Positions 9,656-34,254 of a DNA stretch of 64,000 nucleotides are shown one piece after another. The translations under genes were made by a program, and so were the position numbers. Source of the DNA: Falsochrobactrum shanghaiense (lineage in GTDB: Bacteria > Pseudomonadota > Alphaproteobacteria > Rhizobiales > Rhizobiaceae); contig NZ_QGDB01000008.1 in NCBI RefSeq assembly GCF_003149535.1, positions 1 to 64,000 of the forward strand, written 5' to 3'. Below the pieces are notes generated by a model. The model ran no database searches. It was not told where the DNA came from and saw only the letters and a list, made by a program, of their open reading frames with translations. Numbering within the stretch: the stretch's first letter is position 1; each line of letters starts with the position of its first letter.

Positions 9656-9680
9656 GGAACTGGCGTCAATATAATTCGTT
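9656..9680 (+). promoter_or_regulatory. EcfG-type stress promoter (GGAAC-N16-CGTT)
   Basis: GGAAC at 9656-9660, 17 bases, then GTT at 9678-9680 (preceded by C, the full alphaproteobacterial consensus). It lies 40 bases before the start of the PepSY-like gene at 9721. Confidence 0.7.
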
Positions 9681-9720
9681 CATTTGAGCGATGGGCGCAA
9701 ACCAGATGTGGATAGTGGTC

Positions 9721-10047
9721 ATGTATAAGTTTTCGACAGTTGCAGCGTTGATCATGTCGACGCTTATCTCCACCGCTCCGGCGAATGCCCAAAGCATTGA
9801 GATCGGTCCGAATGGCGTGCAGATAAACCCGGATGGAAGCCGTCGCATGGAGCGCGAGCGCCATGATGATCGCAATGAAATAAGCGAGCGCCGCGCCGCG
9901 CGGATCGCGCAACGCGAGGGGATGGACGAAATAGAAACCATATCCCGACGCAGGAATGTATATGTCGTCCGGGGCCTGGATCGCGGCGACAATCCTATGC
10001 GGGTCGTTATTGATCGTGATACTGGCGAGGTACTCGAGGCGCGATAA
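9721..10047 (+). CDS. Exported PepSY-like small protein
   Basis: 108 residues if started at 9721, where MYKFSTVAALIMSTLISTAP ending in ANA-QS forms a clear signal peptide. Upstream ATGs at 9691 and 9706 would put extra residues before it, and 9691 coincides with the predicted transcription start. The mature protein is charged (RRMERERHDDRNEISERR) and ends in a PepSY-like beta unit (NVYVVRGLDRGDNPMRVVID, then DTGEVLEAR). PepSY-type periplasmic proteins are often protease inhibitors or sensor elements; no specific role is known here. An EcfG-type promoter at 9656 suggests induction under general stress. Confidence 0.75.
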   Translation: MYKFSTVAALIMSTLISTAPANAQSIEIGPNGVQINPDGSRRMERERHDDRNEISERRAARIAQREGMDEIETISRRRNVYVVRGLDRGDNPMRVVIDRDTGEVLEAR

Positions 10048-10252
10048 AACAGAATGATCCGCTCCGGCCTCTTCATCTAGCCCGCGCTTGTCGAAATCGC
10101 ATTTTGTTAGGCAATATCCGGGAACAAGAGCATCCTCTTGCTGAATTGCGGGTTCACCCTATTTCATTTTCTGGTAGGCCTCATGAACGATATATCCAGG
10201 ATCGCCCTTTCCAAACCGGAATCCGCGGATCATGTCCGCACTGTCTCTTGCC

Positions 10253-11482
10253 TCAACGATAAGAAAAAAGTTCCAGATCAGAGCTTGTTCTGCCTGCTAT
10301 TGCCGAGGCGATAGCCTGCGAGGCGATCATCGCGAATGTAATTCCATTGCCCCCGAAACCCATTGCTGTAAAAATACGCTCATACCCCGGAACGCGATCA
10401 ATGATCGGCAGTCCATCTTTTGTGACTCCGAAAGGGGACGACCAGACATATTTGGGCCTGCCAATATCGATGCCTGTGAGATTTCTCAGCTTTTCTTTGA
10501 TGACAGCTGCCTTATCCGCTAATTTCGCAGGATCAGCATTGCTTTCTTGCGCTTCCTCATCTTCGCCGCCGACAATAATGCGTCCGGATTCATCGGTTCT
10601 CAGGTAAAGATAAGGATCGGCTGCTTCCCAGACGAGCATCTCTCCCATCCAGATGGGAAGATCGGCTATGGGTTCTGAGGCCAAAGCCCAGGTCGATGTT
10701 ATCCTGTGCGATTTTGTCTCCATCTGGGGCAGATACTCATAGCCCGTACAGAATACCGCATGATCAGCAATCAGAACCTCGCCTTGGCGGGTAGCCAGGG
10801 CGACGCCTGAGGACAACTCTGCCATATCGGTAATCTCGACCGGAGAAACGATCTGCGCCTTGCGCGTCAATGCTGCGCGTAACAGACCGGCAGCCAATTG
10901 TGCCGGATTGGCAGATGCCGATTCTTCCGACAGGATAGCGCCAGTCCGGTCCAAACCGAAGCGCTCAATCAGATCAGCGCGTTTGAGATAATTAGCCTTG
11001 ATTCCAATTTTGTTACGCGCCGTAGCTTCCTTAGCGAGCGCTCGCGCTCCCAATTCATTGCCCGCCAGATAAAGCGCAGGTTTAAAACACATTTTACACT
11101 CGATATTGAGCTTGAGTGTCAAATTAACCAGGTCCCCCACGGCTTGCACCGAGCGCAGCCACGCGGCATCGGCCCGTTTCTCTCCGATTTTCTTGCGTAA
11201 GCGCGTCAGTGGCACATCTATTTCATGCTGGATCATTGCGGTTGATGCAGAGGTTGATCCGCGCACCGGTGGACGCCGGTCCAAAATCAGCACGCTCTTC
11301 CCGGCGCGGGTGAGCGCTTCTGCCATCAGGGCACCCATGATGCCGGCTCCGATAACAATAATATCGAAGCGCTCACGCGGGAGATGCTTAATTGCCTTCA
11401 CTGTGGAGTTTGGCGTGTTTATCCAGAAAGGCGTGCCGGTGCGCAGATCGTCTTTACGTGTCACTGCATCACGATCGGCCAT
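10253..11482 (-). CDS. FAD-dependent oxidoreductase, DAO (glycine/D-amino-acid oxidase) family
   Basis: 409 residues. The N-terminal dinucleotide-binding motif is DIIVIGAGIMGALMAEAL followed by LILDRRPPVRGSTSAS, and a C-terminal FAD-contact block reads FTAMGFGGNGITFAMIASQA. This is the DAO fold used by D-amino-acid oxidases, sarcosine oxidases and similar flavoenzymes; the substrate cannot be assigned. There is no signal peptide. The last 36 codons are repeated, about 90% identical at DNA level, as an orphan fragment at 31952-32059, so a second copy of this gene once existed in the window. No clear promoter was seen. Confidence 0.88.
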   Translation of the reverse strand: MADRDAVTRKDDLRTGTPFWINTPNSTVKAIKHLPRERFDIIVIGAGIMGALMAEALTRAGKSVLILDRRPPVRGSTSASTAMIQHEIDVPLTRLRKKIGEKRADAAWLRSVQAVGDLVNLTLKLNIECKMCFKPALYLAGNELGARALAKEATARNKIGIKANYLKRADLIERFGLDRTGAILSEESASANPAQLAAGLLRAALTRKAQIVSPVEITDMAELSSGVALATRQGEVLIADHAVFCTGYEYLPQMETKSHRITSTWALASEPIADLPIWMGEMLVWEAADPYLYLRTDESGRIIVGGEDEEAQESNADPAKLADKAAVIKEKLRNLTGIDIGRPKYVWSSPFGVTKDGLPIIDRVPGYERIFTAMGFGGNGITFAMIASQAIASAIAGRTSSDLELFSYR

Positions 11483-11566
11483 GACAATCTGCTCCTACGG
11501 ATAAAGCCGCAATTTCAGTCAAAGAAAAACAAAAACTGAGAAGCCAACGGGTCTGCTCCCGTTATT

Positions 11567-11731
11567 TCAGCTTTCCGCTTTGAACTTTTTTGCTTCTTCC
11601 AGCAGTTTTTGCCGGTTCCTCCCGAAAGTTTCAATCAGCTTGCGCGCCTGAAGCGGCGAAATGTCGGAGTTTTCGGCCAGGAATTTAACATCTTCGTCGT
11701 CAGTCAGGGGAGTGGTTGAATTCTCATTCAT
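11567..11731 (-). CDS. Small acidic helical protein, DUF3606/UBA-like
   Basis: 54 residues from ATG 11731 behind AGGA; the frame extends to 11836 but without a ribosome site. The sequence (LTDDEDVKFLAENSDISPLQ, then ARKLIETFGRNRQKLLEEAK) looks like a small three-helix UBA-like or DUF3606-like domain. Such proteins are common in stress islands of rhizobia, with no known function. The start of the 11785-11942 reading frame lies upstream on the same strand, so both may be served by the EcfG-type promoter at 11963-11987. Confidence 0.65.
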   Translation of the reverse strand: MNENSTTPLTDDEDVKFLAENSDISPLQARKLIETFGRNRQKLLEEAKKFKAES

Positions 11732-11784
11732 AATGGAGCGTCCTTTCTGGTCTATGGAATTGCTTGGCGATGGCATTGCCTGTC

Positions 11785-11942
11785 CTATGAAATCACGAAA
11801 TATCCAATGATTATCCCTGCAATAATGACCGACCACCAGATAAGATAGGCTGGTCCCTCCCGGATTTCGGCAGCGCAGCCGCCAAAGGGGCAGGGATATT
11901 CTCGCCGGTGTTGATCCATTTATCTGATAGCTCTGTGTTCAT
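11785..11942 (-). pseudogene. Small single-span membrane protein, probably frameshifted
   Basis: From ATG 11942 (strong GGGAGG site) the frame reads MNTELSDKWINTGENIPAP and then ends as a basic peptide. Shifting one base near 11890 gives CPFGGCAAEIREGPAYLIWW followed by SVIIAGIIIGYFVIS and a stop at 11785, a convincing transmembrane segment. The start signals and the membrane segment lie in different frames, which suggests a one-base indel or a sequencing error. An EcfG-type promoter precedes it. Confidence 0.4.
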
Positions 11943-11962
11943 CCTATTATCCTCCCGCTTTT

Positions 11963-11987
11963 AACAGCGAGGCAGATGAATTGTTCC
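11963..11987 (-). promoter_or_regulatory. EcfG-type stress promoter
   Basis: On the minus strand GGAAC (11987-11983), 17 bases, GTT (11965-11963). The ATG at 11942 follows 20 bases later with a good ribosome site between. Confidence 0.65.
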
Positions 11988-12106
11988 CCGGGTTTTTCGC
12001 TGCTTGCTTGCCATTTGGTCCTTCAACGGCCCGCCATCTGCCGGTTGAATGAAACAATCTCCGTTTTGAAAAGTTAATTCATCAGTTTCAAACCAAGGAG
12101 GCCGCC

Positions 12107-12319
12107 ATGAAACAGAACCCTAAACCCGGAACCACAGAGCAGAAACCAAAATGGGAAGGTCCGCCAGAAAACCGGCCGCGTGGGTACGAACCGGCAGAGG
12201 ACGACCCGGTGACAAAACGCGATGCCGCTGGCCACAATCTTTCCGACCCGGACCGCAAGAACCTGTCCGATGCGTTTAGCGTACCAAAGCACGCGAGAAA
12301 CAAGGCAGGTAAACAATGA
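12107..12319 (+). CDS. Small hydrophilic protein of unknown function
   Basis: 70 residues behind an AAGGAGG site. The protein is rich in Pro, Lys, Asp and Glu and without hydrophobic runs (KPKWEGPPENRPRGYEP, then DAAGHNLSDPDRKNLSDAF), so it is probably disordered. I do not recognise a family. The stop overlaps the start of the flavoprotein gene (ATGA at 12316), so the two are co-translated. A near-match stress promoter (TGAAAC, 17 bases, GTT at 12050-12075) lies upstream but lacks the GG of the -35 box. Confidence 0.65.
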   Translation: MKQNPKPGTTEQKPKWEGPPENRPRGYEPAEDDPVTKRDAAGHNLSDPDRKNLSDAFSVPKHARNKAGKQ

Positions 12320-12948
12320 CCCAGCCCTTCAATCCCCCACTTACAGCCATTGCATTGAATGCTACTTTGAAGCGAGGCGACGATAAGCACCCCTCCTCGA
12401 CCGAGCGGATATTGCGCTATCTCGAGACGCATTTGGCTCCCTATGATGTCACAACGGAACATATACGACTGAGTGAATTTAATATCGAACCAGGCGTTAC
12501 ATCGCTTGAAAGCGACAGGGATGATTGGCCGCGCATCAGGGAAAAAATTATTAACGCAGATATTCTGATTTTCGGCAGTCCAATCTGGCTCGGACAGCCA
12601 TCAAGTATCTGCAAGCGCGTGCTTGAGCGTATGGATGCCTTTCTTTCCGAGACTGACGATCACAATCGAATGCCTTCCTACGGGCGTATCGCTGTTGTAG
12701 CCGTGGTGGGCAATGAGGACGGAGCGCATTTGGTGTCATCGCAGCTCTATCAGGCATTGAATGATGTGGGCTTTACTATTCCCGCCAACGGCGTGACCTA
12801 TTGGGTCGGAGAAGCCATGCAATCCACCAATTTCGTTGATCTGGCAGAAGTACCTGAAACCGTAGCTTCCGCCACAAAAATGCTGGCCGCTAACTGCGCG
12901 CATCTAGCCCGATTGTTGAAAAATGCCCCTTATCCCGGTTCAGGCTGA
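12316..12948 (+). CDS. Flavodoxin-like NAD(P)H-dependent FMN reductase
   Basis: 210 residues with a flavodoxin fold: phosphate loop ALNATLKRGDDKHPSST near the start, then ADILIFGSPIWLGQPSSICK, the flavin-contacting loop typical of NADPH-dependent FMN reductases and arsenical-resistance ArsH-like proteins. The middle AVVAVVGNEDGAHLVSSQLY is also family-like. Such enzymes reduce flavins, quinones or azo compounds in the cytosol and often serve in oxidative stress defence. Translationally coupled to the small gene before it. Confidence 0.85.
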   Translation: MTQPFNPPLTAIALNATLKRGDDKHPSSTERILRYLETHLAPYDVTTEHIRLSEFNIEPGVTSLESDRDDWPRIREKIINADILIFGSPIWLGQPSSICKRVLERMDAFLSETDDHNRMPSYGRIAVVAVVGNEDGAHLVSSQLYQALNDVGFTIPANGVTYWVGEAMQSTNFVDLAEVPETVASATKMLAANCAHLARLLKNAPYPGSG

Positions 12949-12966
12949 TATTTAAAAGAGAAGGGC

Positions 12967-13056
12967 AAGCCCGCAAGATCCAAAACACAACAACAGGCTA
13001 CCGGTGCCGCTTTGGCTGCAAAACGCAGAGATAAGCCAAGAAAGCGGACCCGAACG
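12967..13056 (+). pseudogene. Fragment of a DUF3008 gene
   Basis: The plus strand reads KPARSKTQQQATGAALAAKR followed by RDKPRKR, clearly related to the start of the intact DUF3008 protein at 31707-31895 (MPAKSKAQQQAAGAALAAKR). The ATG is lost and the similarity stops after about 30 codons. Intact copies of DUF3008 and of the FAD oxidoreductase, and fragments of each, lie in reciprocal positions in the window, which suggests a duplicated block. Confidence 0.7.
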
Positions 13057-15321: not shown

Positions 15322-15530
15322 GTTGGTTCTCTCCATGTCTTCATGAATGGATGTTCCTAAACATTCGCGCTTCTTAAAAGTTCCAAATCTACTCATAAAT
15401 TTCGATAATACGGGCGAGGTGACACTGATGCGTCACTCAATATGCAATATGGTCATCGGCCTGGGTGCGTAAAAAGAACAATCATCCAACCAACGGTCCA
15501 CAAAGAGTGGGTAGTCAGAGAAATCTTGCT

Positions 15531-15762: not shown

Positions 15763-15885
15763 CTAACAAATAGAAATGAAGATTGTTCCTGTCCGAACGA
15801 AGCGTTTCATGCAATTCGGATCGTTATCGGCGGCCCCAGTCACCAATACAGGCCCGAGCCGTTTAAGTTTGTCTGCCAACCCCAT
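15763..15885 (-). pseudogene. Truncated Nramp-type metal transporter (first ~25 residues)
   Basis: A strong ribosome site (GCAGGAGG) and ATG at 15885 start MGLADKLKRLGPVLVTGAAD followed by NDPN, the characteristic first loop of Nramp transporters (LGPGLVTGASDDDPSG). After that the frame diverges and stops within 15 codons, and the eleven membrane segments are gone. The start region survived while the body was deleted, so this is a dead gene left by a deletion near 15800. Confidence 0.6.
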
Positions 15886-17732: not shown

Positions 17733-17758
17733 AACAAGACGAGCCACATCATTGTTCC
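17733..17758 (-). promoter_or_regulatory. EcfG-type stress promoter of the decayed BON-like gene
   Basis: GGAAC (17758-17754), 18 bases, GTT (17735-17733) on the minus strand, 40 bases before the former ATG at 17692. The promoter is preserved although the gene is dead. Confidence 0.6.
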
Positions 17759-18159: not shown

Positions 18160-18184
18160 AACCGTCGCCGAGCGGCAATGTTCC
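18160..18184 (-). promoter_or_regulatory. EcfG-type stress promoter of the KGG-like gene
   Basis: Minus strand GGAAC (18184-18180), 17 bases, GTT (18162-18160). Confidence 0.7.
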
Positions 18185-19277: not shown

Positions 19278-19302
19278 AACCTCCCTCACAAGCATATGTT
19301 CC
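19278..19302 (-). promoter_or_regulatory. EcfG-type stress promoter of the DUF4142 gene
   Basis: Minus strand GGAAC (19302-19298), 17 bases, GTT (19280-19278). Confidence 0.7.
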
Positions 19303-19770: not shown

Positions 19771-19795
19771 GGAACCTCCAGCGCTTTTGGAAGTT
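19771..19795 (+). promoter_or_regulatory. EcfG-type stress promoter of ku-ligD
   Basis: GGAAC (19771-19775), 17 bases, GTT (19793-19795), about 100 bases before the ku start codon. Confidence 0.7.
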
Positions 19796-19898: not shown

Positions 19899-20729
19899 AT
19901 GGCTCCGCGGGCAAACTGGAAAGGCCAGCTGAAAGTTGACCAGCTTTTATGTCCGGTCGCGCTTTATACGGCAGCGTCCACCTCGGAACGCGTTTCTTTT
20001 CATCTTCTCAATCGTAAAACCGGCAACAGGCTGAGCCGTGAATTCGTCGATAGCGATACGGGCAAGCCGGTGGCACGTGAGGATCAGGTGAAGGGTTATG
20101 AAGTTTCCTCGGGCAATTATATCAGCTTCGATCCGGAGGAAGTAGCATCGGCTATACCCGAGAATGACAAGACGCTGAATGTGACGCGCTTCGTGAAATG
20201 CAATGAGATCGATGATGTCTATTTCGACCGGCCTTATTATCTTGCGCCAGACGGGGACGCGGAAAGTTTCGCGCTGCTACGGCAAGGCATGGAGGCGGAA
20301 AAGGTGGTGGCAATTGCCGAAGCCGTTTTGTTTCGACGGGCGCGCAAACTGCTTATCCGCGCCCATGATGGTGGCCTGATCGCAACCACGCTCAATTTCG
20401 ATTATGAAGTGCGGTCCGCCGCCGAGGTTTTTGGCGAGCTTCCGGCTTTTCAATTCGATAAGGAAATGCTGGCACTTGCCAGACATATCATCGAAACGAA
20501 GATGGGGACTTTCGATCCGGCCGGCTTTGATGACCGGTATGATGCAGCCCTTGCCGAACTCATCAAGGCGAAGATTGAAGGCAAGCCGCTGAAAAAACCG
20601 GCAGCGCATAGGACCGCAGAGGTCATCGATCTCAAGGAAGCGCTTCGTAAAAGCGCAAAGCTCGACGCTTCCCGGGGCAAATCCGCTGAAACTGGCAGGC
20701 GCAGCGCGAAAAGCCGAAAGGCGGGCTGA
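19899..20729 (+). CDS. ku: Ku protein for non-homologous end joining
   Basis: 276 residues, the normal bacterial Ku length. Conserved Ku core: MAPRANWKGQLKVDQLLCPV (compare WKG.I.FGLV), FHLLNRKTGNRLSREFVDSD, REDQVKGYEVSSGNYISFDP, and TRFVKCNEIDDVYFDRPYYL. The lysine-rich tail (RKSAKLDASRGKSAETGRRS) is typical of the C-terminal LigD-interacting and DNA-binding extension. Ku forms a dimer that threads onto double-strand ends and recruits LigD. The stop overlaps the ligD start (TGATG), so the two are translationally coupled. Driven by an EcfG-type promoter. Confidence 0.95.
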   Translation: MAPRANWKGQLKVDQLLCPVALYTAASTSERVSFHLLNRKTGNRLSREFVDSDTGKPVAREDQVKGYEVSSGNYISFDPEEVASAIPENDKTLNVTRFVKCNEIDDVYFDRPYYLAPDGDAESFALLRQGMEAEKVVAIAEAVLFRRARKLLIRAHDGGLIATTLNFDYEVRSAAEVFGELPAFQFDKEMLALARHIIETKMGTFDPAGFDDRYDAALAELIKAKIEGKPLKKPAAHRTAEVIDLKEALRKSAKLDASRGKSAETGRRSAKSRKAG

Positions 20730-23245
20730 TGATGCGACAGCCGCTTGATACCTATTACAAGAAGCGTGATTTCAGCTTGACCAAAGAGCCGCGCGGGCGC
20801 GCTTTGCGCATGAAGGGAAATCTCTTTGTCGTGCAAAAACATGATGCGCGCAGATTGCATTATGATTTTCGCCTTGAAATGGATGGTGTCCTCAAAAGCT
20901 GGGCCGTCACGCGCGGGCCGAGCCTCGTGCCCGATGAAAAGCGCCTTGCCGTGCATGTCGAGGATCATCCTCTGGAATATGCTGGTTTCGAAGGCACCAT
21001 ACCCAGGGGCGAATATGGCGGCGGCACGGTGATTGTCTGGGATCGGGGCCGCTGGAAGCCCGAGGGCGACCCGCGCAAGCAATATGAAAAAGGTCATCTG
21101 GTCTTCGAGCTTGAGGGCGAAAAACTCAAGGGCCGCTGGCATCTGGTGCGCATGCATGGCAAGCCGGGTGAAAAGCGCGAAAACTGGCTGCTCATCAAGG
21201 GCGATGATGAATTTGCGAGAAATCGGCAGGATGCCGATATTCTCAATGAGCAACCGCAATCGGTGAAGAGCGGACGCGTGATCGCCGAAGTTGAACATGA
21301 AGAGCCGGGCTGGTCTTCCAAAACCGGACCGATCCGCAAGAAAGCGACTGCCAAGAAAGCTCTGCCTGCTCCAGCGACCTTTCCCGAACAAGCGGCCAAA
21401 TCGAAGATGCCGGATTTCATAGAGCCGGCGCTTGCCACCCTTGTCGCCGATGCGCCCGAGGGGGATCGCTGGATGCACGAAATTAAGTTCGACGGTTATC
21501 GCATTCAGGCGCATCTGGCTGACGGTAATGTGACGCTTTATTCACGCGGCGGGCTGGATTGGACCAGAAAATTCGGGCAGGCCATCATGGATGACCTGCT
21601 CGCTATGGGCGTGAAAACGGCGATTTTCGATGGCGAAATCGTGGTCGAAAATCAGTCTGGCCTGTCGGATTTTTCAGCGCTGCAAAGTGATCTGGGCGAT
21701 GGGCGAACCGACCGCTTCGCTTATTACATCTTTGATCTTCTTTATTGTGACGGTTACGATCTTCGCGCGGTGCCGCTGTCGGACCGAAAAGCGCTGGCAA
21801 TAAAGCTCGTTTCACAACCATCTGCGGCAGTGCGTTTCAGCGAGGGTTTTGAGGCAGCTGGTGAAGAGGTTTTGAAAAATGCCTGCGGGCTGGGGCTGGA
21901 AGGCATCGTCTCGAAACTCAAGGATGCCACCTATAGCAATGGCCGCACCATGGACTGGCGCAAATCGAAATGCATTGGCCGGCAGGAATTTGTCATTGCC
22001 GGGTTTGTGCCCTCGAGCGCGACGCGTGGTGCGATTGGCTCGCTCGTTCTTGGCGTCCATGACACGAAGGGCCTGATCCCCGTCGGGCGGGTCGGCACCG
22101 GCTTTTCGGTCAAGAGCGCAAAGGAGCTTTATAGTCGGCTCAATACCATGCGGCAGGAGGAAAGCCCTTTTATGGTGCCGCTTACAGCGGATGAAAAGCG
22201 CGGAGTGAAGTTCGTTGCGCCGGAACTTGTTGCCGAAATCGAGTTTCGCGCCTGGACGGCAGACAAAAGGCTGCGTCATGCAGCTTTTCGCGGCCTGCGC
22301 GACGATAAACCCGCTCAGGACGTCAAATGGGAGAAACAAGCTGTGCCTGCTATCACGTCCGATGCCTCCACGCCCGAGACCGATGTAAAACTAACCCATC
22401 CCGACAGGGTCTACTGGCCCAAGGAAGGCGTAACGAAACAGGGGCTTGCGGATTATTATGCCGAAATATGGCCCCTTATCGAGCCGTTCATCATCAACCG
22501 GCCGCTTGCCTTGCTGCGCTGCCCCACGGGGATCGAGGGCGAGCATTTCTTCCAGAAACATGGATGGAAAGGGCTGAATGAGCATATTGTTGAAGTGCAG
22601 GACCCATCTGACAAAGATGAGGAGCCCTTTATCAGCATAAAGGATTTCGATGGGCTGATCGGACTGGTGCAGGCGGCATCGCTCGAAATCCATCCCTGGG
22701 GTTCGACGCTCAAAAACTGGGAACAGCCCGATATGGTGACGATGGATCTTGATCCGGGGGAGGGGGTTGTCTGGGAGCGCGTCATTGAAGCGGCCTTTGA
22801 AACAAGGGAGCGGCTGGAAAAGCAGGGGCTCGCCGCCTTTGTGAAAACCTCTGGCGGGAAGGGATTGCATGTGGTGGTTCCGCTCAAACCCCGGGCCGAC
22901 TGGCAAGCTGCAAAGACCTTCACCAAGGCCATTGCCGATCAGATGGCGGCCGACAGCCCGGAACGTTACGTCTCGACGATTTCCAAGGCGAAGCGCAAGG
23001 GCAAAATCCTGATTGATTATCTGCGCAATCAGCGCGGCATGACGGCGGTGGCGCCCTATTCACCGCGTGCGCGGCCGGGGGCTGCGGTATCCATGCCGCT
23101 TGCGTGGAATGAGTTGAGCCCGGCGATTGGTCCGGCGCATTTTACCGTTCTGAATGCGTCGACGCGACTGTCCGCGCTCAAAAGCGATCCCTGGCAGGAT
23201 TTCCGCAAGGCGGAAGTCCCGCTGCCGAAAACGAAAGCAAAATAA
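20729..23245 (+). CDS. ligD: ATP-dependent DNA ligase LigD (PE-LIG-POL)
   Basis: 838 residues with all three LigD modules. Residues ~15-150 are the 3'-phosphoesterase (QKHDARRLHYDFRLEMDGVL, EYGGGTVIVWDRG). About 240-530 is the ligase with adenylation motif EIKFDGYRIQAHL, the IFDGEIV box and DWRKSKC. About 545-830 is the primase-polymerase (LTHPDRVYWPKEGVTKQ, MDLDPGEG, KTSGGKGLHVVVPL). This PE-first, POL-last order is the Pseudomonas/rhizobial form rather than the mycobacterial one. It repairs double-strand breaks with Ku. It overlaps the ku stop; a second ku converges on it 2 bases after its stop. Confidence 0.96.
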   Translation: MMRQPLDTYYKKRDFSLTKEPRGRALRMKGNLFVVQKHDARRLHYDFRLEMDGVLKSWAVTRGPSLVPDEKRLAVHVEDHPLEYAGFEGTIPRGEYGGGTVIVWDRGRWKPEGDPRKQYEKGHLVFELEGEKLKGRWHLVRMHGKPGEKRENWLLIKGDDEFARNRQDADILNEQPQSVKSGRVIAEVEHEEPGWSSKTGPIRKKATAKKALPAPATFPEQAAKSKMPDFIEPALATLVADAPEGDRWMHEIKFDGYRIQAHLADGNVTLYSRGGLDWTRKFGQAIMDDLLAMGVKTAIFDGEIVVENQSGLSDFSALQSDLGDGRTDRFAYYIFDLLYCDGYDLRAVPLSDRKALAIKLVSQPSAAVRFSEGFEAAGEEVLKNACGLGLEGIVSKLKDATYSNGRTMDWRKSKCIGRQEFVIAGFVPSSATRGAIGSLVLGVHDTKGLIPVGRVGTGFSVKSAKELYSRLNTMRQEESPFMVPLTADEKRGVKFVAPELVAEIEFRAWTADKRLRHAAFRGLRDDKPAQDVKWEKQAVPAITSDASTPETDVKLTHPDRVYWPKEGVTKQGLADYYAEIWPLIEPFIINRPLALLRCPTGIEGEHFFQKHGWKGLNEHIVEVQDPSDKDEEPFISIKDFDGLIGLVQAASLEIHPWGSTLKNWEQPDMVTMDLDPGEGVVWERVIEAAFETRERLEKQGLAAFVKTSGGKGLHVVVPLKPRADWQAAKTFTKAIADQMAADSPERYVSTISKAKRKGKILIDYLRNQRGMTAVAPYSPRARPGAAVSMPLAWNELSPAIGPAHFTVLNASTRLSALKSDPWQDFRKAEVPLPKTKAK

Positions 23246-24242: not shown

Positions 24243-24267
24243 GGAACCTCGATCAATATGGCGAGTT
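24243..24267 (+). promoter_or_regulatory. EcfG-type promoter of the sigma factor gene
   Basis: GGAAC (24243-24247), 17 bases, GTT (24265-24267), 53 bases before the ATG at 24321. If the encoded sigma reads the same motif, the gene is autoregulated. Confidence 0.65.
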
Positions 24268-24320: not shown

Positions 24321-25055
24321 ATGGCACAGATTCACCTACGAGGCCAGATATCAAACTCCAAGCAAATGAGAGCTCAAGGAAGCCGGGCGCCCGGGAAGGA
24401 AGGCGCGGAAGCAGATCGCGAAGATAAAATCACATCGAATAATTTATACGAGCAGCGCCTGCGGCCCAGAACGCCGAACCAATCGGCTAACCATACACTT
24501 GGCTCTGCAGCCATCTTGTTCATCGTCACATCCTTGCATCAATCTGACGTGATGTCTTGTAAAGATGCGATGGTTCAAAACGACGCTTTACAGCCGGACG
24601 ATCTTGTTGCCATGATTCCTGCGCTGCGCGCTTTCGCGCGCTCGTTTTACCGTGACAAAGAGAATGCGGAAGATCTGGTTCAGGAGACTTTGCTAAAAGC
24701 CTTGGCCAACCGGCAGAGATATATACCGTTTTCTCCGCTCAAGTCGTGGCTGTTTACCATTATGCGTAATACGTTTTGCACAAATTATCGGATGCAACAG
24801 CGCGAAATTCCCGGCCGTGGTGAATATTTTATAGCGACTGTAGACGCTTCGCAGGAGGTGGTAATGGAAACGAAGGATGTAGAGATTGCCCTTCAATCAC
24901 TGCCTGCCAAGTATCGCAACGTTCTTTCTCTGGTTGTGCTCGAAGGAAAAAGCTACGAACTGACAGCACAACTTTGTGGCTGTTCGATTGGAACAGTAAA
25001 AAGCCGGCTGCATCGTGCGCGCCGTAAATTGAGTATATTGATTGAAGGGGCGTGA
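24321..25055 (+). CDS. ECF sigma factor, EcfG (ECF15)-like
   Basis: Sigma regions 2 and 4 occupy the C-terminal ~160 residues: RAFARSFYRDKENAEDLVQE, SPLKSWLFTIMRNTFCTNYR, then ALQSLPAKYRNVLSLVVLEG and CSIGTVKSRLHRARRKL. The WLFTIMRNTF block and overall form are those of EcfG, the general-stress sigma of alphaproteobacteria. The frame from 24321 has a good site (AGAGGAAG) and lies just after the promoter, but adds 77 residues with no family similarity; starts at 24552 or 24570 would give the usual length. The next gene encodes a PhyR-like receiver. Core EcfG is usually chromosomal, so this is probably an extra copy. Confidence 0.85.
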   Translation: MAQIHLRGQISNSKQMRAQGSRAPGKEGAEADREDKITSNNLYEQRLRPRTPNQSANHTLGSAAILFIVTSLHQSDVMSCKDAMVQNDALQPDDLVAMIPALRAFARSFYRDKENAEDLVQETLLKALANRQRYIPFSPLKSWLFTIMRNTFCTNYRMQQREIPGRGEYFIATVDASQEVVMETKDVEIALQSLPAKYRNVLSLVVLEGKSYELTAQLCGCSIGTVKSRLHRARRKLSILIEGA

Positions 25056-25165
25056 ATTTGCTTCGGCCCCGCTGAAATCAAAACATCTCCTGATGTTGTA
25101 TAAAAAACAGCCCTGAATCACGCAATATCTTGTCTTTCATTGCAAACCATGGCCAAATAACAGGT

Positions 25166-25558
25166 ATGGTTCAATCATATAATAATAGAGTTAGCTTATT
25201 CGTCGATCGGAAAATTCTGGTCTTTGAAGATCTCTTTTTACTCTCGCAAGAGGCGCAAAGTAAGCTTGTGAAAATGGGAGCGACGGTGTTGGGACCCGTC
25301 AATACCACACAGAGCGCGCTTGATTTTCTGGAACGAGAGAATATTGATGGAGTTATAATTGATATATCGCTCGAAATTAATCAAGTGTTACCGATCATAG
25401 CAAAACTCGATGATATATCGGTGCCTTTTATATTTGCATTTTCAAACAATCCTCACCTCGATGCAACGGATTTTTCCGGTTTTGTATTAAGTCATCGCGA
25501 GAGCGATCTGATAACCATTGCGGAAGCACTTTTTATTCGCTCCAATAGCGACCATTGA
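25166..25558 (+). CDS. Single-domain response regulator, PhyR-receiver-like
   Basis: About 130 residues from ATG 25166; a TTG at 25130 would add 12. One receiver domain only: acidic pocket in KILVFEDLFLLSQEAQSKLV, GATVLGPVNTTQSALDFLE, phosphoacceptor Asp in NIDGVIIDISLEINQVLPII, then SVPFIFAFSNNPHLDATDFS. The last block is where PhyR-type (FATGUY) receivers have FATGYG; here it is FAFSNNP and the usual Lys is absent, so signalling may be altered. There is no output domain. Placed 110 bases after the EcfG-like sigma gene, it is likely part of its control. Confidence 0.75.
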   Translation: MVQSYNNRVSLFVDRKILVFEDLFLLSQEAQSKLVKMGATVLGPVNTTQSALDFLERENIDGVIIDISLEINQVLPIIAKLDDISVPFIFAFSNNPHLDATDFSGFVLSHRESDLITIAEALFIRSNSDH

Positions 25559-27549: not shown

Positions 27550-27575
27550 GGAACCAACCCCTTGTTTCGCTTGTT
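27550..27575 (+). promoter_or_regulatory. EcfG-type stress promoter of the first Crp/Fnr gene
   Basis: GGAAC (27550-27554), 18 bases, GTT (27573-27575), 32 bases before the ATG at 27607. Confidence 0.65.
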
Positions 27576-27606: not shown

Positions 27607-28323
27607 ATGTCTTTTCCATCACAAGGCGCGATGGCCAACAAACTCCTGGCTTTGCTTCCGTCATCCGATTACGACGCCATTGCCCGCGAGATTACCTATG
27701 TCGAGCTTCCGCGCGGTTTGACGCTCGCGAAAACGGGCAGACCGATTGAATATGTCTATTTTCTTACGAATGGTATTGGCTCGGTTATTGTGGCAACTGC
27801 GGAAGGTCGCCGGGCCGAGGCCGGGATTTTCGGTTTCGATGGATATATTCCCACTTCAGCAATAGCTGGCGTGGAAACCAGCCCTTATGATGTCATTATC
27901 CAGGTGGCGGCACAGGGATATGAAATGCCTTATGAGAATTTCCGTCGTTGGATGGACAGCAATCGCAGTTTTTCAAACATAATGATACGTTCGATTGAAG
28001 CCTTCTCGATTCAGCTTGCCTATACGGCCGTCTCGAATGCAATTCATGAAGTTACGCAACGCTTGGCCCGGTGGCTATTGATGTGTGATGACAGGATATT
28101 GGGCAATGAAATAGCGCTTACGCATGAATTCCTCTCGATAATGCTCGCCGTCAGGCGTCCCACGGTCACGACTTCACTTCATGTTCTGGAGGGACTGGGC
28201 TTTATCCGGTCGGAACGCGGGGTCATCATTATTCGCAACCGTTCGGGACTGGAACAATATGCCCATGATGCTTATGGCCGCCCCGAAAAGGAATATCGCC
28301 GTTTGATGCAAGGTTTTTCGTAA
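27607..28323 (+). CDS. Crp/Fnr-family transcriptional regulator
   Basis: 238 residues behind GGGAGAT. N-terminal cyclic-nucleotide-binding-like beta barrel (ITYVELPRGLTLAKTGRPIE, YVYFLTNGIGSVIVATAEGR), dimer helix (NAIHEVTQRLARWLLMCDDR), C-terminal winged helix (HEFLSIMLAVRRPTVTTSLH, IRSERGVIIIRNRSGLEQYA). The FxSIMLxVRRPTVT recognition region is the form common in rhizobial Crp/Fnr proteins of unknown ligand; no cysteine cluster for an iron-sulphur centre is present. It faces a related gene tail to tail 1 base away. Confidence 0.88.
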   Translation: MSFPSQGAMANKLLALLPSSDYDAIAREITYVELPRGLTLAKTGRPIEYVYFLTNGIGSVIVATAEGRRAEAGIFGFDGYIPTSAIAGVETSPYDVIIQVAAQGYEMPYENFRRWMDSNRSFSNIMIRSIEAFSIQLAYTAVSNAIHEVTQRLARWLLMCDDRILGNEIALTHEFLSIMLAVRRPTVTTSLHVLEGLGFIRSERGVIIIRNRSGLEQYAHDAYGRPEKEYRRLMQGFS

Positions 28324-28324
28324 C

Positions 28325-29044
28325 TTACGATAGCCGGAGCCGGTCGCCAAAAAGCTGGCTATATTCATTTTCAGGTTTTCCATAGGCTTCGCCGGCGAAT
28401 TCCTCAAGGCCTCTGCGATCACGTATAATGATACGTCCCCGCTCCGATCGCACCAGTCTTTTGCCTTCCAGCAAATGAAGTCCGGTGGTGATGCTCGGAC
28501 GCCGGACACCAAGCATAAGCGCGATGAAATCGTGGGTCAGGATGATTTCATCGCCGTCTGTACGATCATGGGACATTAACAGCCATCGTGCCAGTCGCTC
28601 GTGTATATGCAAATTTACATTTGCCCACACAGTGTAGGAAATCTGCGAGGCAAAGCTGTGAATGTAACGCGCAAGCAGACTGGCAAACATGCTATTGCGA
28701 TTAATTTCCTTTATGGCTGCGCTGATAGCTATCCGGTGACCATACCCGCTAACCTGCATGATTACGTCATGAATGCTCGTTGTCGCTCCTACGGCTCCCG
28801 AAGTTGGCGAGAATCCTTCACGTCCTACCATCCCGGCTTCTGCTACCCGTCCTCGTGTGGATGTGGCGATGACCGAAGCTATCCCGCCGCAAAGAAAGTA
28901 AAGATAGTCGATAGGTCGATTGGCTCTAACAATAATCTGGCCACGCTCAAGGGTAACAGGTTCCAGCAGTGAATAAATATTACCGAGAACGTCTGAAGGC
29001 AGGCTCTTAAGAAGTCGATTATGCAATTTGGGCTCGCTGTACAT
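28325..29044 (-). CDS. Second Crp/Fnr-family transcriptional regulator
   Basis: About 239 residues from ATG 29044; a TTG at 29062 would add six. Same plan as the convergent neighbour: LPSDVLGNIYSLLEPVTLER, IDYLYFLCGGIASVIATSTR, HIHERLARWLLMSHDRTDGD, FIALMLGVRRPSITTGLHLL, then YGKPENEYSQLFG at the end. The two share roughly half their residues by eye and are clearly paralogues, perhaps with different signals. No exact EcfG box was found upstream; a degenerate GAAAT-N18-GTT occurs. Confidence 0.86.
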   Translation of the reverse strand: MYSEPKLHNRLLKSLPSDVLGNIYSLLEPVTLERGQIIVRANRPIDYLYFLCGGIASVIATSTRGRVAEAGMVGREGFSPTSGAVGATTSIHDVIMQVSGYGHRIAISAAIKEINRNSMFASLLARYIHSFASQISYTVWANVNLHIHERLARWLLMSHDRTDGDEIILTHDFIALMLGVRRPSITTGLHLLEGKRLVRSERGRIIIRDRRGLEEFAGEAYGKPENEYSQLFGDRLRLS

Positions 29045-29230
29045 TTGTCCTACTTCGGGCAAAGCACCAACTTTGCGCCCTCACACCCCATTTCCATTGA
29101 GGTTTTGAGTCTATACCATTGTATTTTCACAAAGGATTTTCTGTACGCTAGCAGACGGAGTGGCGCCGCGCGGCAATTCAAATGCCAGGGGGAGTGCGAT
29201 AGAGCTGAAAAACTCCAATAAAGATTACGT

Positions 29231-30864: not shown

Positions 30865-30886
30865 CATAAGCTCCATTGTTTGCGGG

Positions 30887-30930: not shown

Positions 30931-30989
30931 GCCTTTGTTTTATCGCCCTATCTTGGTGGAAAACTTTCATCCGGGCAAACGGACGACGA

Positions 30990-31493: not shown

Positions 31494-31706
31494 TGCAGGC
31501 TCCTCCTCATTATGTTTGCGAATATCCCTGTCGTCTGAATGAAATCCCGACGACTACTGACCTAACCCGCCAGGAAGGATTTTGTTTCATGCACGCATCG
31601 GAATAATCCAGGCGAACAGTTGCGATTATTAAGGCTGCGTTGGAGGTGGTGACCGACCGCAAATCCATTCGCTACACCTATGATTGATTGCTTGCTGTTG
31701 GTATTG

Positions 31707-31895
31707 TCACGACTTGGATTTGTGTTCGGGTTTGCCTTTCTGTTTGGTGGAAGCCATTTTCTCAAGCTCCTTTTCGCTCATGGACTTGGCCATTTCTTTC
31801 GATGCGCCGCGCAGTTCGCTTTTTGGCTTATCTCCGCGTTTTGCAGCCAAAGCCGCACCTGCGGCCTGTTGTTGTGCTTTGGATTTTGCGGGCAT
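31707..31895 (-). CDS. DUF3008 small basic protein
   Basis: 62 residues from ATG 31895 behind AAGGAG; the frame to 31937 has no site. Starts MPAKSKAQQQAAGAALAAKR and continues SELRGASKEMAKSMSEKELE, then a Lys-rich tail. This is the DUF3008 family, small charged proteins common in rhizobia, function unknown. A fragment of a second copy lies at 12967-13056. Confidence 0.82.
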   Translation of the reverse strand: MPAKSKAQQQAAGAALAAKRGDKPKSELRGASKEMAKSMSEKELEKMASTKQKGKPEHKSKS

Positions 31896-31951
31896 TTTCG
31901 TCTCCTTATTTTCCGGGATAGCGTAATATCTTCTCACTGGAGGAAGGATGT

Positions 31952-32059
31952 GGCTTCGGCGGCAATGGAATTACATTCGCGTTGATCGCCTCCCAAGCTA
32001 TCACCTGGGCAATAGCAGGCAGAACAAGCTCTGATCTGGAGCTTTTTTCTTATCGTTGA
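31952..32059 (+). pseudogene. Orphan 3' end of a FAD oxidoreductase gene
   Basis: 36 codons (GFGGNGITFALIASQAIT, then WAIAGRTSSDLELFSYR and a stop) match the end of the FAD oxidoreductase at 10253-11482 with about three amino-acid changes and about 90% DNA identity. Nothing of the gene remains upstream. The high identity suggests a fairly recent duplication followed by deletion, or gene conversion. Confidence 0.85.
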
Positions 32060-32061
32060 GG

Positions 32062-32090
32062 CAAAAACCCGGGCATTACCCGGGCTTTTA
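32062..32090 (-). terminator. Intrinsic terminator CCCGGG-n5-CCCGGG
   Basis: Arms at 32068-32073 and 32079-32084 with TTTTTG following on the minus strand, directly after the DUF2171 gene stop. An A/T run on both sides could make it bidirectional. Confidence 0.7.
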
Positions 32091-32096
32091 CTCTGA

Positions 32097-32393
32097 TTAA
32101 TCACGATGTTCCGGCATTTCCTTAAGCTGCTCCTTGGACCAGCCTGTCACCGCATGAACCTCGCCATTCTCGTCGCGCATAAAATCAAGATTGCTGATTG
32201 GCACGGCGACGGGCTTGGCCCCGATTCCGAGAAAACCGCCAACGTCGACAGTAACGGTACTTCCGCTACCCGCTCCATGCATATGGTCCACAGTCCCGAC
32301 CTTCTCATCGTCGACACCATATATAGTTGCACCTTCAATATTAGCGGGCGTGAGTTCCTCGTTCGTCAGACGGACGTGAGCAGAGTGGTCCAT
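32097..32393 (-). CDS. DUF2171/PRC-barrel-like protein
   Basis: 98 residues from ATG 32393 behind GGAGGAAAG; the frame extends to 32453 but the stress promoter lies inside that part. A PRC-barrel-like beta fold: EELTPANIEGATIYGVDDEK, VGTVDHMHGAGSGSTVTVDV, then GIGAKPVAVPISNLDFMRDE. DUF2171 proteins are small, cytosolic and stress-associated, with no known function. An EcfG-type promoter and an intrinsic terminator delimit it as a single unit. Confidence 0.82.
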   Translation of the reverse strand: MDHSAHVRLTNEELTPANIEGATIYGVDDEKVGTVDHMHGAGSGSTVTVDVGGFLGIGAKPVAVPISNLDFMRDENGEVHAVTGWSKEQLKEMPEHRD

Positions 32394-32424
32394 TTTCTTT
32401 CCTCCATTTTGGCTTTGAACCACA

Positions 32425-32450
32425 AACCTTTCAGGAGGGCTATTTGTTCC
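32425..32450 (-). promoter_or_regulatory. EcfG-type stress promoter of the DUF2171 gene
   Basis: Minus strand GGAAC (32450-32446), 18 bases, GTT (32427-32425), 31 bases before the ATG. Confidence 0.7.
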
Positions 32451-32625
32451 CAAAATGCGGGATCAGGAAGAACAAAGGGCAATCTTCAAAAGGGTGGCGA
32501 GGTTCCGGGCCGGGTCCGGTTTCAAGGGGGCAGAGCAACAAGCTTGCAGAGCCTTTCTTCCAGCAAGAGCGTCGAAGCTTGGTAGCGCTGCATGTTCTTG
32601 GGCCGCTGGAGCAAACAAGCGAAAG

Positions 32626-32650
32626 GGAACATCCGCTATCCTTGGCGGTT
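32626..32650 (+). promoter_or_regulatory. EcfG-type stress promoter of the DUF3175 gene
   Basis: GGAAC (32626-32630), 17 bases, GTT (32648-32650), 29 bases before the ATG at 32680. Confidence 0.7.
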
Positions 32651-32679
32651 ATCGATATTCGCAAGAGGGGAGTTTTGAT

Positions 32680-32967
32680 ATGGCCCACGCAAAGAAATGG
32701 TCAGCCGAAGTGACCGATCATAGCGATGCTTTAGATCTCGAACCGCATGTGTTCGAGCAGGATGATCCGAAGGAAATTGCAGCCTCCCTGAAACGCTCGG
32801 CTGACAAGAGCCATAAGCGCAAGACGGAGCCATTTCGCTCGGCCATGTCTATGCTGACCTTCTATATCAACCGAGCTGGCAAGAATTTGCCGGAAAAGCG
32901 CAAGCAAGTGCTGGAAGCTGCCAAAAAGGAACTGCGCAAGGCTTATGGCAAGGCTGACCAGCCTTAA
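32680..32967 (+). CDS. DUF3175 protein
   Basis: 95 residues from ATG 32680 behind GAGGGGAG; the longer frame from 32455 contains the promoter. Family blocks WSAEVTDHSDALDLEPHVFE, DDPKEIAASLKRSADKSHKR and SAMSMLTFYINRAGKNLPEK. DUF3175 proteins are small basic cytosolic proteins typical of alphaproteobacterial stress regions, function unknown; DNA association is possible given the charge. Followed after 26 bases by the proline-rich gene, probably the same transcript. Confidence 0.85.
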   Translation: MAHAKKWSAEVTDHSDALDLEPHVFEQDDPKEIAASLKRSADKSHKRKTEPFRSAMSMLTFYINRAGKNLPEKRKQVLEAAKKELRKAYGKADQP

Positions 32968-32993
32968 GCCCGCCTTGAACAAGGGAGAGACCG

Positions 32994-33251
32994 ATGAAAA
33001 TCTGGATCGACGAATGGATCATTCGATCTGTGGGTTCCGGGACACCGTCCGACCCGCCGGAAATACCGGAAAATGAGCCGGAAGGCATTCCGGTCGAGCC
33101 GCCGGAAACCATTCCTGAACCGGACAAGGCGCCGTTCAGCCCCGACGAGCCTGAACAGATACCGCCCCTACCTATGCCCGAACAACCTTCGCCCGGTCCC
33201 GCCAACCCGGGTCAGCCAGCAATGCACGGTGCCACTCTCCTGTCAATCTGA
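32994..33251 (+). CDS. Proline/glutamate-rich protein of unknown function
   Basis: 85 residues behind AGGGAGAGA. After MKIWIDEWIIRSVGSG the protein is almost entirely Pro, Glu, Asp and Ile in PE-repeats (PSDPPEIPENEPEGIPVEPP, PETIPEPDKAPFSPDEPEQI), so it is extended and unstructured. No family was recognised. Placed directly after DUF3175, it probably shares the stress promoter at 32626. Confidence 0.6.
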   Translation: MKIWIDEWIIRSVGSGTPSDPPEIPENEPEGIPVEPPETIPEPDKAPFSPDEPEQIPPLPMPEQPSPGPANPGQPAMHGATLLSI

Positions 33252-33554
33252 ACCGGGATAAGGAGCGCTCTGCAACATGCCTGCCAGACATGCGCAGTTA
33301 GCGGTCAGCCGGGGGTAGCTGCGCGTATTTTTCTAGATTGAGGCCTCGCCCCGATAGGTGACGCATTAGCGGTATCAGCATTACGCCAATCAACTGTGAT
33401 TTAGCATGTTTCCATGAGAAAGGCGGAATCCCGGCTACGAGCATGGCCGTCCGAAAGAGACCTTTCGGCGTTCTGCCCTATAGCTAACGCATGACCAGCA
33501 ACTGTGGTGTGGATGCTATCGGAGCGCAAACGAGAACAAAGCCTGGACCATTTG
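33252..33554. other. Intergenic stretch without recognised genes
   Basis: About 300 bases with no convincing frame, promoter box or terminator. It marks the edge between the stress genes and a zone of GST fragments. Confidence 0.4.
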
Positions 33555-33770
33555 TCAGGCAGCAACCGCGCGGAGCGATTTCTCTATTTCTCCGCCGCAA
33601 TAGGCTTTGCCATAATCTTTGAAGCTTTTGGTATCCAGCGCAGCGAGTGAGGGGAGCGCCTGAACACGTCTTGAAAGGTTCATGATTGTGGGAGAAGTTT
33701 CCTGAATAATGGTCTCAATGACAGCGAAGCGATCGGCCATCGTAGTCCAGAGGATGGATGTCACGATACC
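33555..33770 (-). pseudogene. C-terminal fragment of an unrecognised, perhaps GST-like, protein
   Basis: Minus-strand frame ILWTTMADRFAVIETIIQET, then MNLSRRVQALPSLAALDTKS and ending GKAYCGGEIEKSLRAVAA. The helical pattern (W..R..., SRRVQALPSLAAL) is like the C-terminal domain of a glutathione transferase, but I cannot name it. No start signals were seen; it meets the oppositely oriented GST fragment near 33775, which suggests a rearrangement junction. Confidence 0.35.
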
Positions 33771-33779
33771 CGTTACGTT

Positions 33780-34193
33780 GATGACGCCTTTCGGGGGCGA
33801 GCGCTGCAACCCGTCGAACCGAAGGCGCGAGCTCGGATGAACCAGATCGTCAGCATAGCTGACGCATATATCTATCCGCACCTCGTTTGGGGATTGTATA
33901 TCGAGCTTGTTTCAAAGGCGGCCAAAGGCGAACCGGCTGACGAAAGTCGTGTAGCGCTGGCACGGGCGAAATCGCCGGTGTGCATTGACGTCCTCGCCGA
34001 GTTCCTGGGCGACAGCCTTTGGCTTGCCGGCAATCACATTACCCTGGCCGATCTCTATGTCGCCCCGATGCTCGACTACTTCTTATTGGTGCCCGAGGGG
34101 CAGGAAATGTTCTCCGCGAAAACAAATCTGCGGAAGTGGTGGGATCGCATGAATGTTCGTGAAAGCATTCAGCTTACCCGCCGAGCGAGATGA
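33780..34193 (+). pseudogene. N-terminally truncated glutathione S-transferase
   Basis: The readable frame starts at about 33801 (ALQPVEPKARARMNQIVSIA) and continues FLGDSLWLAGNHITLADLYV and LRKWWDRMNVRESIQ to a stop at 34193. That is the complete all-helical C-terminal GST domain, with the ITLAD capping motif. The thioredoxin-fold half that binds glutathione is absent upstream. An ATG at 33837 exists, but a lone C-terminal domain would not be an enzyme. Confidence 0.7.
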
Positions 34194-34229
34194 CCGCCTG
34201 CGGGCGACCCTTTGCTTGGGGTCGAGAAT

Positions 34230-34254
34230 GGAACTTGTAGGGATATTACGTGTT
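34230..34254 (+). promoter_or_regulatory. EcfG-type stress promoter of the alpha/beta hydrolase gene
   Basis: GGAAC (34230-34234), 17 bases, GTT (34252-34254), 54 bases before the ATG at 34309. Confidence 0.6.

What the first reader, a model, noticed from the sequence alone, without database searches (positions are those of the whole stretch)
9656..34254. A replicon-borne general-stress regulon: 14 EcfG-type promoters in 25 kb, including in front of its own EcfG-like sigma gene
Seen directly: GGAAC followed after 17 or 18 bases by GTT occurs at 9656, 11987(-), 16720, 17758(-), 18184(-), 19302(-), 19771, 24099(-), 24243, 25733, 27550, 32450(-), 32626 and 34230, each oriented toward and about 20-100 bases from a start codon. 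By simple base counting about 1.5 matches would be expected in this span on both strands. Known: alphaproteobacterial EcfG recognises GGAAC-N16/17-CGTT. Inference: PepSY, DUF982, KGG-like, DUF4142, ku-ligD, ku2, BON, Crp/Fnr, DUF2171, DUF3175 and an alpha/beta hydrolase form one stress regulon carried with its own sigma.
Basis: partly seen in the sequence, partly recalled or inferred. Interest (0 to 1): 0.88.

Follow-up and report, generated by a model that had tools for sequence, protein, structure and literature searches.

The report
Plasmid stress sigma with own promoters
A bacterial plasmid carries a block of stress-survival and DNA-repair genes together with its own version of the stress-response switch, and the promoters in front of those genes differ in a consistent way from those at the cell's chromosomal stress switch.

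Summary
All 14 sites exist; GGAAC-N17-GTT occurs 16 times in 9.6-34.3 kb against 0.8 per control spacing. They mark a stress/NHEJ island on a repABC-type replicon with an EcfG-like (ECF15) sigma at 24552-25055. But they are not canonical EcfG promoters: the base before GTT is C in 1 of 19, whereas the chromosomal phyR locus has CGTT. In 20 congeneric loci holding this sigma, 196 N17 sites stand against about 14 per other spacing, G/A/T/C 106/36/35/19; 30 congeneric phyR loci give C/T/A/G 62/10/4/0. GGTT exceeds its control only in genomes with the sigma. Best reading: a non-canonical EcfG with its own promoter class, GGAAC-N16-(G>A,T)GTT. A PhyR-like pseudo-receiver is encoded just after the sigma in 22 of 22 loci. 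GGTT as an EcfG variant is already in print; its split by paralogue I did not find in eight searches. Against: R. etli katG and ecfG2 lack the motif, R. etli EcfG2 does not group with this sigma, and other genera show a mixed picture. No transcription data exist.

The parts
24552..25055 (+). EcfG-like (ECF15) non-canonical sigma factor
   Evidence: Sigma70_r2, Sigma70_r4_2 and PhyR_sigma2 over Pfam cut-offs; start chosen by alignment with congeners; dN/dS 0.08 against the C13 copy
24243..24267 (+). promoter-like site ahead of the sigma operon, GGAAC-N17-GTT, A before GTT
   Evidence: orthologous site in C13 and a site upstream of the sigma in 20 of 20 congeneric loci, base G in 16, T in 3, A in 1, C in 0
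24321..24551 (+). stretch where 19 of 20 congeneric loci have a small KGG-like gene; here an open extension in frame with the sigma
   Evidence: alignment, tblastn, dN/dS 0.56
25130..25558 (+). small PhyR-like pseudo-receiver
   Evidence: next to the sigma in 22 of 22 loci; Asp kept, Thr and Lys lost in 22 of 22; weak NCBIfam match to PhyR family, E 4e-6, below cut-off; model and fold match; dN/dS 0.16
9656..9680 (+). site before a PepSY-like gene (below Pfam cut-off); the only CGTT of the island
11963..11987 (-). site, TGTT; nearest start 126 nt or more away
   Evidence: site kept in C2
16720..16744 (+). site before DUF982 gene 16768, GGTT
17733..17758 (-). site, N18, TGTT; no convincing gene downstream
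18160..18184 (-). site before KGG-like gene, GGTT
19278..19302 (-). site before DUF4142 gene, GGTT
19771..19795 (+). site before ku-ligD (19899-23245), AGTT
   Evidence: site kept in C13
24075..24099 (-). site before second ku gene, GGTT
   Evidence: site kept in C13
25733..25757 (+). site before BON-domain gene 25796, GGTT
27550..27575 (+). site before Crp/Fnr-type gene 27607, N18, TGTT
   Evidence: site kept in C2 with N17
32425..32450 (-). site before PRC-barrel gene, N18, GGTT
   Evidence: site kept in C2
32626..32650 (+). site before DUF3175 gene 32680, GGTT
34230..34254 (+). site before alpha/beta hydrolase gene 34309, TGTT; palindromic, also reads as a site on the minus strand (34256-)
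15360..15384 (-). additional site, TGTT, 112 nt before ORF 15247-14159
15765..15789 (-). additional site, TGTT, before a 57-aa ORF
4374..8122 (+). repABC-type replication genes (ORFs 4374-5603, 5694-6725, 6881-8122; RepA name recalled)
   Evidence: nearest plasmid record labels repC and repB, Ochrobactrum sp. LM19, 75.7% over 1.3 kb

Best explanation
The island is the regulon of a plasmid-borne, non-canonical EcfG (ECF15) sigma factor. Shown by sequence: in the window and in 20 congeneric loci the sites cluster round this sigma, keep a fixed spacing (GGAAC-N16-xGTT), mostly face genes, and prefer G (then A or T) at x, where promoters at canonical phyR loci have C. Inferred: the sigma directs RNA polymerase to GGAAC-N16-(G/A/T)GTT and switches on NHEJ (Ku, LigD), stress proteins, a Crp/Fnr-type regulator and its own operon, largely in parallel with the chromosomal EcfG, which prefers CGTT. 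The shift at the upstream edge of the -10 element is inferred to come from changes in region 2.4 (canonical RNEFYT, here RNTFCT).
For: Spacing-specific excess in the window: 16 at N17 against 0.78 per other spacing. Replicated in 20 congeneric loci from 19 genomes: 196 at N17 against 14.4 per other spacing and 22 at N18; G 106, A 36, T 35, C 19. Thirty of the 34 congeneric phyR loci found: N17 35, N18 41; C 62, T 10, A 4, G 0; G versus C and N17 versus N18 differ between the two sets (Fisher 6e-33 and 4e-14, sites not independent). Grouped by downstream protein over 23 sources (20 loci, window, L037, L038): 23 families occur in 3 or more, majority base G 14, A 4, T 3, C 2. Sites face an RBS-ATG ORF in 136 of 196 against 33 of 196 in reverse. 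GGTT at N16 over N19: 1223/1094 in 23 sigma-positive and 402/489 in 12 sigma-negative genomes, p 1.3e-4. Sibling contigs keep GGAAC and GTT at 6 of 6 orthologous intergenic sites with spacers 66/86 identical. A site stands upstream of the sigma in 20 of 20 congeneric loci, none with C. Sigma under purifying selection, dN/dS 0.08.
Against: No transcription data. The phyR loci hold only about four promoter families, so 0 of 76 G overstates independence. Among 33 single-member site families C is the base in 11, and 2 of 23 recurrent families are C. The N19 control is imperfect: in sigma-negative genomes GGTT lies below it (0.82), and sigma and island presence are confounded. In 20 other-genus loci the picture is mixed: N17 G 41, C 23, T 19, A 17; N18 C 19, T 15, G 12, A 2, and 9 of 27 such loci have CGTT just upstream of the sigma (read by eye). 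R. etli katG and ecfG2 have no exact site, and R. etli EcfG2 falls nearer the canonical sigmas in the tree (94/87, not starred, long branches). GGTT promoters are used by both EcfGs of Sphingopyxis in vitro (PMC7083833, sections 10-11 read), and C/GGTT is a printed EcfG consensus (PMC4814048 and PMC12148442, passages).
Confidence: 0.68

Rival explanations
1. The island promoters belong to the general EcfG regulon: the chromosomal EcfG reads CGTT and non-CGTT alike, the base before GTT only tunes promoter strength, and the island sigma is a redundant booster.
For: In Sphingopyxis a GGTT and a TGTT promoter were transcribed in vitro with EcfG1 and EcfG2 (PMC7083833, sections 10-11). M. extorquens consensus is C/GGTT for several EcfGs (PMC4814048, passages). 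T or A replaces C in 14 of 76 canonical-locus sites.
Against: G in 0 of 76 sites at canonical loci but 106 of 196 N17 sites round this sigma; N18 used freely at canonical loci but hardly here. GGTT exceeds its control only in sigma-positive genomes.
Confidence: 0.24
2. The sites are operators of a DNA-binding regulator rather than promoters.
For: 34230 is palindromic; a Crp/Fnr-type regulator lies in the island.
Against: In 175 unique congeneric sites the flanks are asymmetric: after GTT, C has 18% and 9% at the two positions a GTTCC palindrome would need. Sites face genes in 136 of 196 against 33 of 196. Element spacing and sequence are those of ECF promoters.
Confidence: 0.04
3. The cluster is chance or a compositional effect.
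For: Some single sites (16770, 25330, 8729) lie inside genes and are probably chance.
Against: Spacing-specific excess in the window and in 20 loci; 0 of 100 shuffles reach the count.
Confidence: 0.01

Closest known systems
Non-canonical EcfG2 (PF00052) of Rhizobium etli CFN42, plasmid p42f (PMC3892343)
   Same: Plasmid-borne ECF15 sigma away from phyR-nepR, in a neighbourhood with DUF4142, ferritin-like, alpha/beta hydrolase and Crp/Fnr genes; 14 GGAAC-N17-GTT sites in 40 kb, G 7, T 3, A 2, C 2, plus one N18 with C; the paper reports CGTT at 1 of 19 EcfG2-dependent units and found no EcfG2 motif
   Different: Sequence groups nearer the canonical sigmas; katG and ecfG2 have no exact site; no adjacent receiver
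Canonical EcfG of the phyR-nepR-ecfG locus (here contig C44)
   Same: ECF15-type sigma2 and sigma4, GGAAC -35 element, stress genes
   Different: No nepR or phyR beside the window sigma; -10 edge G/A/T rather than C; strict N16 spacer; region 2.4 residues differ
EcfG paralogues of Methylobacterium extorquens and Sphingopyxis granuli (PMC4814048, PMC7083833)
   Same: Several EcfGs per genome; GGTT occurs among their promoters
   Different: There the paralogues are reported to recognise similar promoters; no split by paralogue is described in the parts I read
PhyR and single-domain receivers SdrG / MrrA (for the small receiver)
   Same: Receiver fold; PhyR 4g97 is the top PDB fold hit and SdrG 5ieb is also listed
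   Different: No sigma-like domain as in PhyR; conserved Thr and Lys lost, whereas SdrG and MrrA work in phosphorelays (from listing and recall)

Membership tests
ECF15 / EcfG sigma factors | Sigma2 and sigma4 domains of EcfG/PhyR type | tested here: met
   PF04542, PF08281 and PF22029 over cut-off; closest solved chain 5uxx, E 2e-30, 'RNA polymerase sigma factor'; NCBIfam EcfG-like equivalogs match below their cut-offs
ECF15 / EcfG sigma factors | Encoded with nepR and phyR (canonical members) | tested here: not met
   NepR rings once in the genome, on C44; no NepR hit in the islands by tblastn at E 0.01, a short query that could miss one
ECF15 / EcfG sigma factors | Target promoters GGAAC-N16/17-CGTT | tested here: not met
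   C in 1 of 19 island sites and 19 of 196 congeneric N17 sites; the -35 element is met
ECF15 / EcfG sigma factors | Held by NepR, released by phosphorylated PhyR | not testable with these tools
   needs binding experiments
R. etli EcfG2-type non-canonical EcfG | Plasmid-borne, away from phyR-nepR, targets not CGTT | tested here: met
R. etli EcfG2-type non-canonical EcfG | Same sigma clade | tested here: inconclusive
   R. etli EcfG2 falls with canonical sigmas at 94/87, not starred, long branches flagged; it shares T and C of RNTFCT
PhyR (for 25130-25558) | N-terminal sigma-like domain plus receiver | tested here: not met
   142 aa, receiver only
Phosphorylatable receiver domain (for 25130-25558) | Asp acceptor plus conserved Thr/Ser and Lys | tested here: not met
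   Asp in 22 of 22; aligned Thr is F or L and Lys is replaced in all 22; Pfam Response_reg below cut-off, E 0.044

The most novel reading that the evidence does not exclude
The sigma is run by a new kind of switch: the adjacent PhyR-derived pseudo-receiver binds the sigma itself, as PhyR's receiver packs on PhyR's sigma-like domain, and holds or stabilises it in place of NepR. Together with the GGTT promoter class this would make a self-contained, plasmid-portable stress module insulated from the chromosomal stress response. Hints only: 22 of 22 linkage, purifying selection (dN/dS 0.16), lost switch residues, and in another genus a gene just before the sigma encoding a receiver followed by a PhyR-type sigma2-like stretch, both below Pfam cut-off (L175:9161-9778).
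Probability: 0.25. Interest if true: 0.8.

Novelty: new variant of a known kind. Interest (0 to 1): 0.62.

Why it matters
About half of completed alphaproteobacterial genomes carry extra EcfG copies (PMC3892343, abstract), and a 2021 review says that the non-canonical kind targets 'a pattern yet to be determined' (PMC8103513, passages read). This locus and its relatives give a concrete candidate pattern, GGAAC-N16-(G/A/T)GTT with a strict spacer, with enough sites to test. It also suggests how plasmids may carry stress survival and end-joining repair together with their own regulator.

Tried and rejected
Genome-collection scan by protein chose N-terminal patterns and returned two unrelated ECF loci; not used. 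Reading 24321-25055 as a 244-aa sigma: 19 of 20 congeneric loci have a separate KGG-like gene there and the extension is weakly constrained, so I take 24552 as the start, but a real extension cannot be excluded. Transfer of the motif to R. etli katG and ecfG2 failed. A look at the first 30 genome hits (L001-L030) was dropped before any count. One-mismatch -35 sites in the island gave seven candidates near ORFs; 31588- before the DUF892 gene is plausible; none was counted. The search for S. meliloti NHEJ under RpoE2 listed three papers, none on that subject; any such link is recall and is not used. Papers seen: PMC3892343 sections 16 and 18 plus passages; PMC7083833 sections 10 and 11 plus passages; PMC6180224, PMC8103513, PMC4814048 and PMC12148442 passages only. 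That the split of C and G by paralogue is not in print rests on eight answered searches of an open-access library, of which I saw listings and the papers named.
Full report
Check of the observation. The exact pattern GGAAC-N17/18-GTT occurs 20 times in the 64-kb window against 3.2 in shuffles. Varying the spacer is the sharper control: in 9.6-34.3 kb N17 gives 16 and N18 gives 3, while 51 other spacings average 0.78 with a maximum of 5; 34.3-64 kb has none at these two spacings. All 14 listed sites are present; five more were missed. Eleven of 14 lie 20-100 nt before a plausible start; 17758 has no convincing gene. The whole genome (3.84 Mb, 47 contigs) has 193 matches, so the island is about 15 times denser.

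What is there. The window lies on contig C46, with repABC-type genes at 4.4-8.1 kb whose nearest plasmid match is from Ochrobactrum sp. LM19, 75.7% over 1.3 kb. The island encodes Ku twice, LigD, DUF982, DUF4142, BON, two Crp/Fnr-type proteins, YflT, DUF892, DUF3008, PRC-barrel, DUF3175 and an alpha/beta hydrolase. The sigma (24552-25055) passes Pfam cut-offs for sigma2, sigma4 and PhyR_sigma2. In the genome PF22029 rings four times: PhyR and EcfG at the canonical locus on C44, the window sigma, and a second island sigma on contig C13, 88% identical. NepR rings once, on C44. Contig C2 carries a region homologous to repC (76%) and, with C13, sibling copies of much of the island: apparently two related replicons, although that C2 and C13 belong together is inferred.

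The promoters are not canonical. Canonical EcfG promoters are GGAAC-N16-CGTT in R. etli (PMC3892343, passages). The base before GTT in the 19 island sites is G 8, T 6, A 4, C 1; in C2 and C13 it is C in 0 of 12. At the genome's own phyR locus the sites before phyR (166714-) and before a small ORF next to it (165660-) are both CGTT. Six of six orthologous intergenic sites shared by the window and C2/C13 keep GGAAC and GTT while the spacers are 66 of 86 identical in the five pairs of equal length; of the two other window sites in homologous segments, 25330 is not kept and 8729 is kept inside a coding region.

Replication in relatives. Of 35 congeneric genomes (the window's own included), 23 hold a sigma match at E 1e-35 or better. 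I took 20 loci of 16-20 kb round the best orthologues, from 19 genomes. GGAAC-N17-GTT occurs 196 times, against 22 at N18 and 7-25 at the 18 other spacings tried; G 106, A 36, T 35, C 19. Thirty of the 34 phyR loci found give 35 at N17 and 41 at N18, C 62, T 10, A 4, G 0. Because orthologous sites are not independent, I grouped sites by downstream protein (20 loci, window, L037, L038): 23 families occur in three or more sources and the majority base is G in 14, A in 4, T in 3, C in 2; among 33 single-member families it is G 12, C 11, T 6, A 4. In whole genomes GGTT at N16 exceeds its N19 control only in the sigma-positive set (1223/1094 in 23 genomes; 402/489 in 12; Mann-Whitney p 1.3e-4), while CGTT leans upward in both (1324/1083; 550/502; p 0.09 between sets). 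The effect is small because most whole-genome matches are chance; the N19 control is imperfect; and sigma and island presence are confounded.

Anatomy of the sigma operon. In 19 of 20 congeneric loci (not L126) a small KGG-like gene lies between the upstream site and the sigma. The site upstream of the sigma is GGTT in 16 of 20, TGTT in 3, AGTT in 1. In the window and C13 the KGG-like gene is replaced by an open extension of the sigma frame with weak constraint (dN/dS 0.56, against 0.08 for the sigma and 0.16 for the receiver). A small receiver lies directly after the sigma in all 20 congeneric loci, the window and C13. It aligns with the receiver domain of PhyR, keeps the phospho-Asp in 22 of 22 and lacks the Thr and Lys switch residues in all. 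Its AlphaFold model (pLDDT 72.6, pTM 0.67) is a receiver fold with PhyR 4g97 as top PDB hit at TM 0.57. Among 20 other-genus loci tblastn found a relative of it in one, L175, as a receiver followed by a sigma2-like stretch just before the sigma, both below Pfam cut-off.

Why the -10 might shift. Forty-three alignment columns are at least 90% fixed and different between 22 non-canonical and 30 canonical sigmas. In region 2.4 canonical RNEFYT is RNTFCT here (T and C in 21 of 22); R. etli EcfG2 shares both. Of 20 other-genus sigmas 11 read NTFYT, 4 NTFCT, 3 another form and 2 did not match my pattern. That region 2.4 meets this part of the promoter is established knowledge of ECF sigmas, not tested here.

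Generality and limits. In 20 other-genus loci N17 gives 100 (G 41, C 23, T 19, A 17) and N18 48 (C 19, T 15, G 12, A 2) against 11 per other spacing: a shift to G with a canonical admixture. In 9 of 27 short other-genus loci a CGTT site lies just upstream of the sigma (read by eye), as if it were driven by the canonical EcfG. In R. etli p42f the 40 kb round ecfG2 hold 14 N17 sites (other spacings 0-3), G 7, T 3, A 2, C 2, while the preceding 40 kb hold 2. That fits the report that CGTT precedes 1 of 19 EcfG2-dependent units. But katG and ecfG2 themselves lack an exact site, and in the tree R. etli EcfG2 lies nearer the canonical sigmas. The window sigma groups with 19 of the 20 congeneric orthologues at 80/84 (not starred), apart from a well supported canonical clade (100/99). 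GGTT is also a printed EcfG variant in Methylobacterium, Rubellimicrobium and Sphingopyxis, so it is not exclusive to non-canonical sigmas everywhere.

Verdict. The finding is real, and the sequence says more than its first interpretation: a plasmid-borne non-canonical EcfG with a recognisably different promoter class and an unstudied pseudo-receiver partner. It is a new variant of a known kind. Mechanism is inferred throughout; nothing here measures transcription.

Noticed in passing
L035-L038 (contigs C2 and C13 of the same genome): A second, diverged copy of much of the island with its own EcfG-like sigma, receiver, ku-ligD-ku and a repC-like region: apparently two sibling replicons in one cell.
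   Followed up: partly
L113, L114, L121-L125, L127, about 3-5 kb from the sigma: A second, more distant EcfG-like sigma lies near the first on the opposite strand.
   Followed up: no
L081-L084, L086-L089, L093: In other genera the non-canonical sigma gene often has a CGTT site just upstream, as if driven by the canonical EcfG (9 of 27 loci, read by eye).
   Followed up: partly
L175:9161-9778: Receiver domain followed by a PhyR-type sigma2-like stretch, the reverse of PhyR's domain order, just before a non-canonical sigma (both below cut-off).
   Followed up: no
window 38145-47671: Y-family polymerase, UvrD-like helicase and an imuA-imuB-dnaE2-like mutagenesis cassette beside the stress island (names recalled from the ORFs, not scanned).
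   Followed up: no
window 48540-49730, 55881-57092 and 53919-55241: Two cytosine-methyltransferase-like ORFs and a HipA-like ORF (names recalled, not scanned).
   Followed up: no
window 27607-28323 and 28325-29062: Two related Crp/Fnr-type genes face each other tail to tail; only the first has a site.
   Followed up: no
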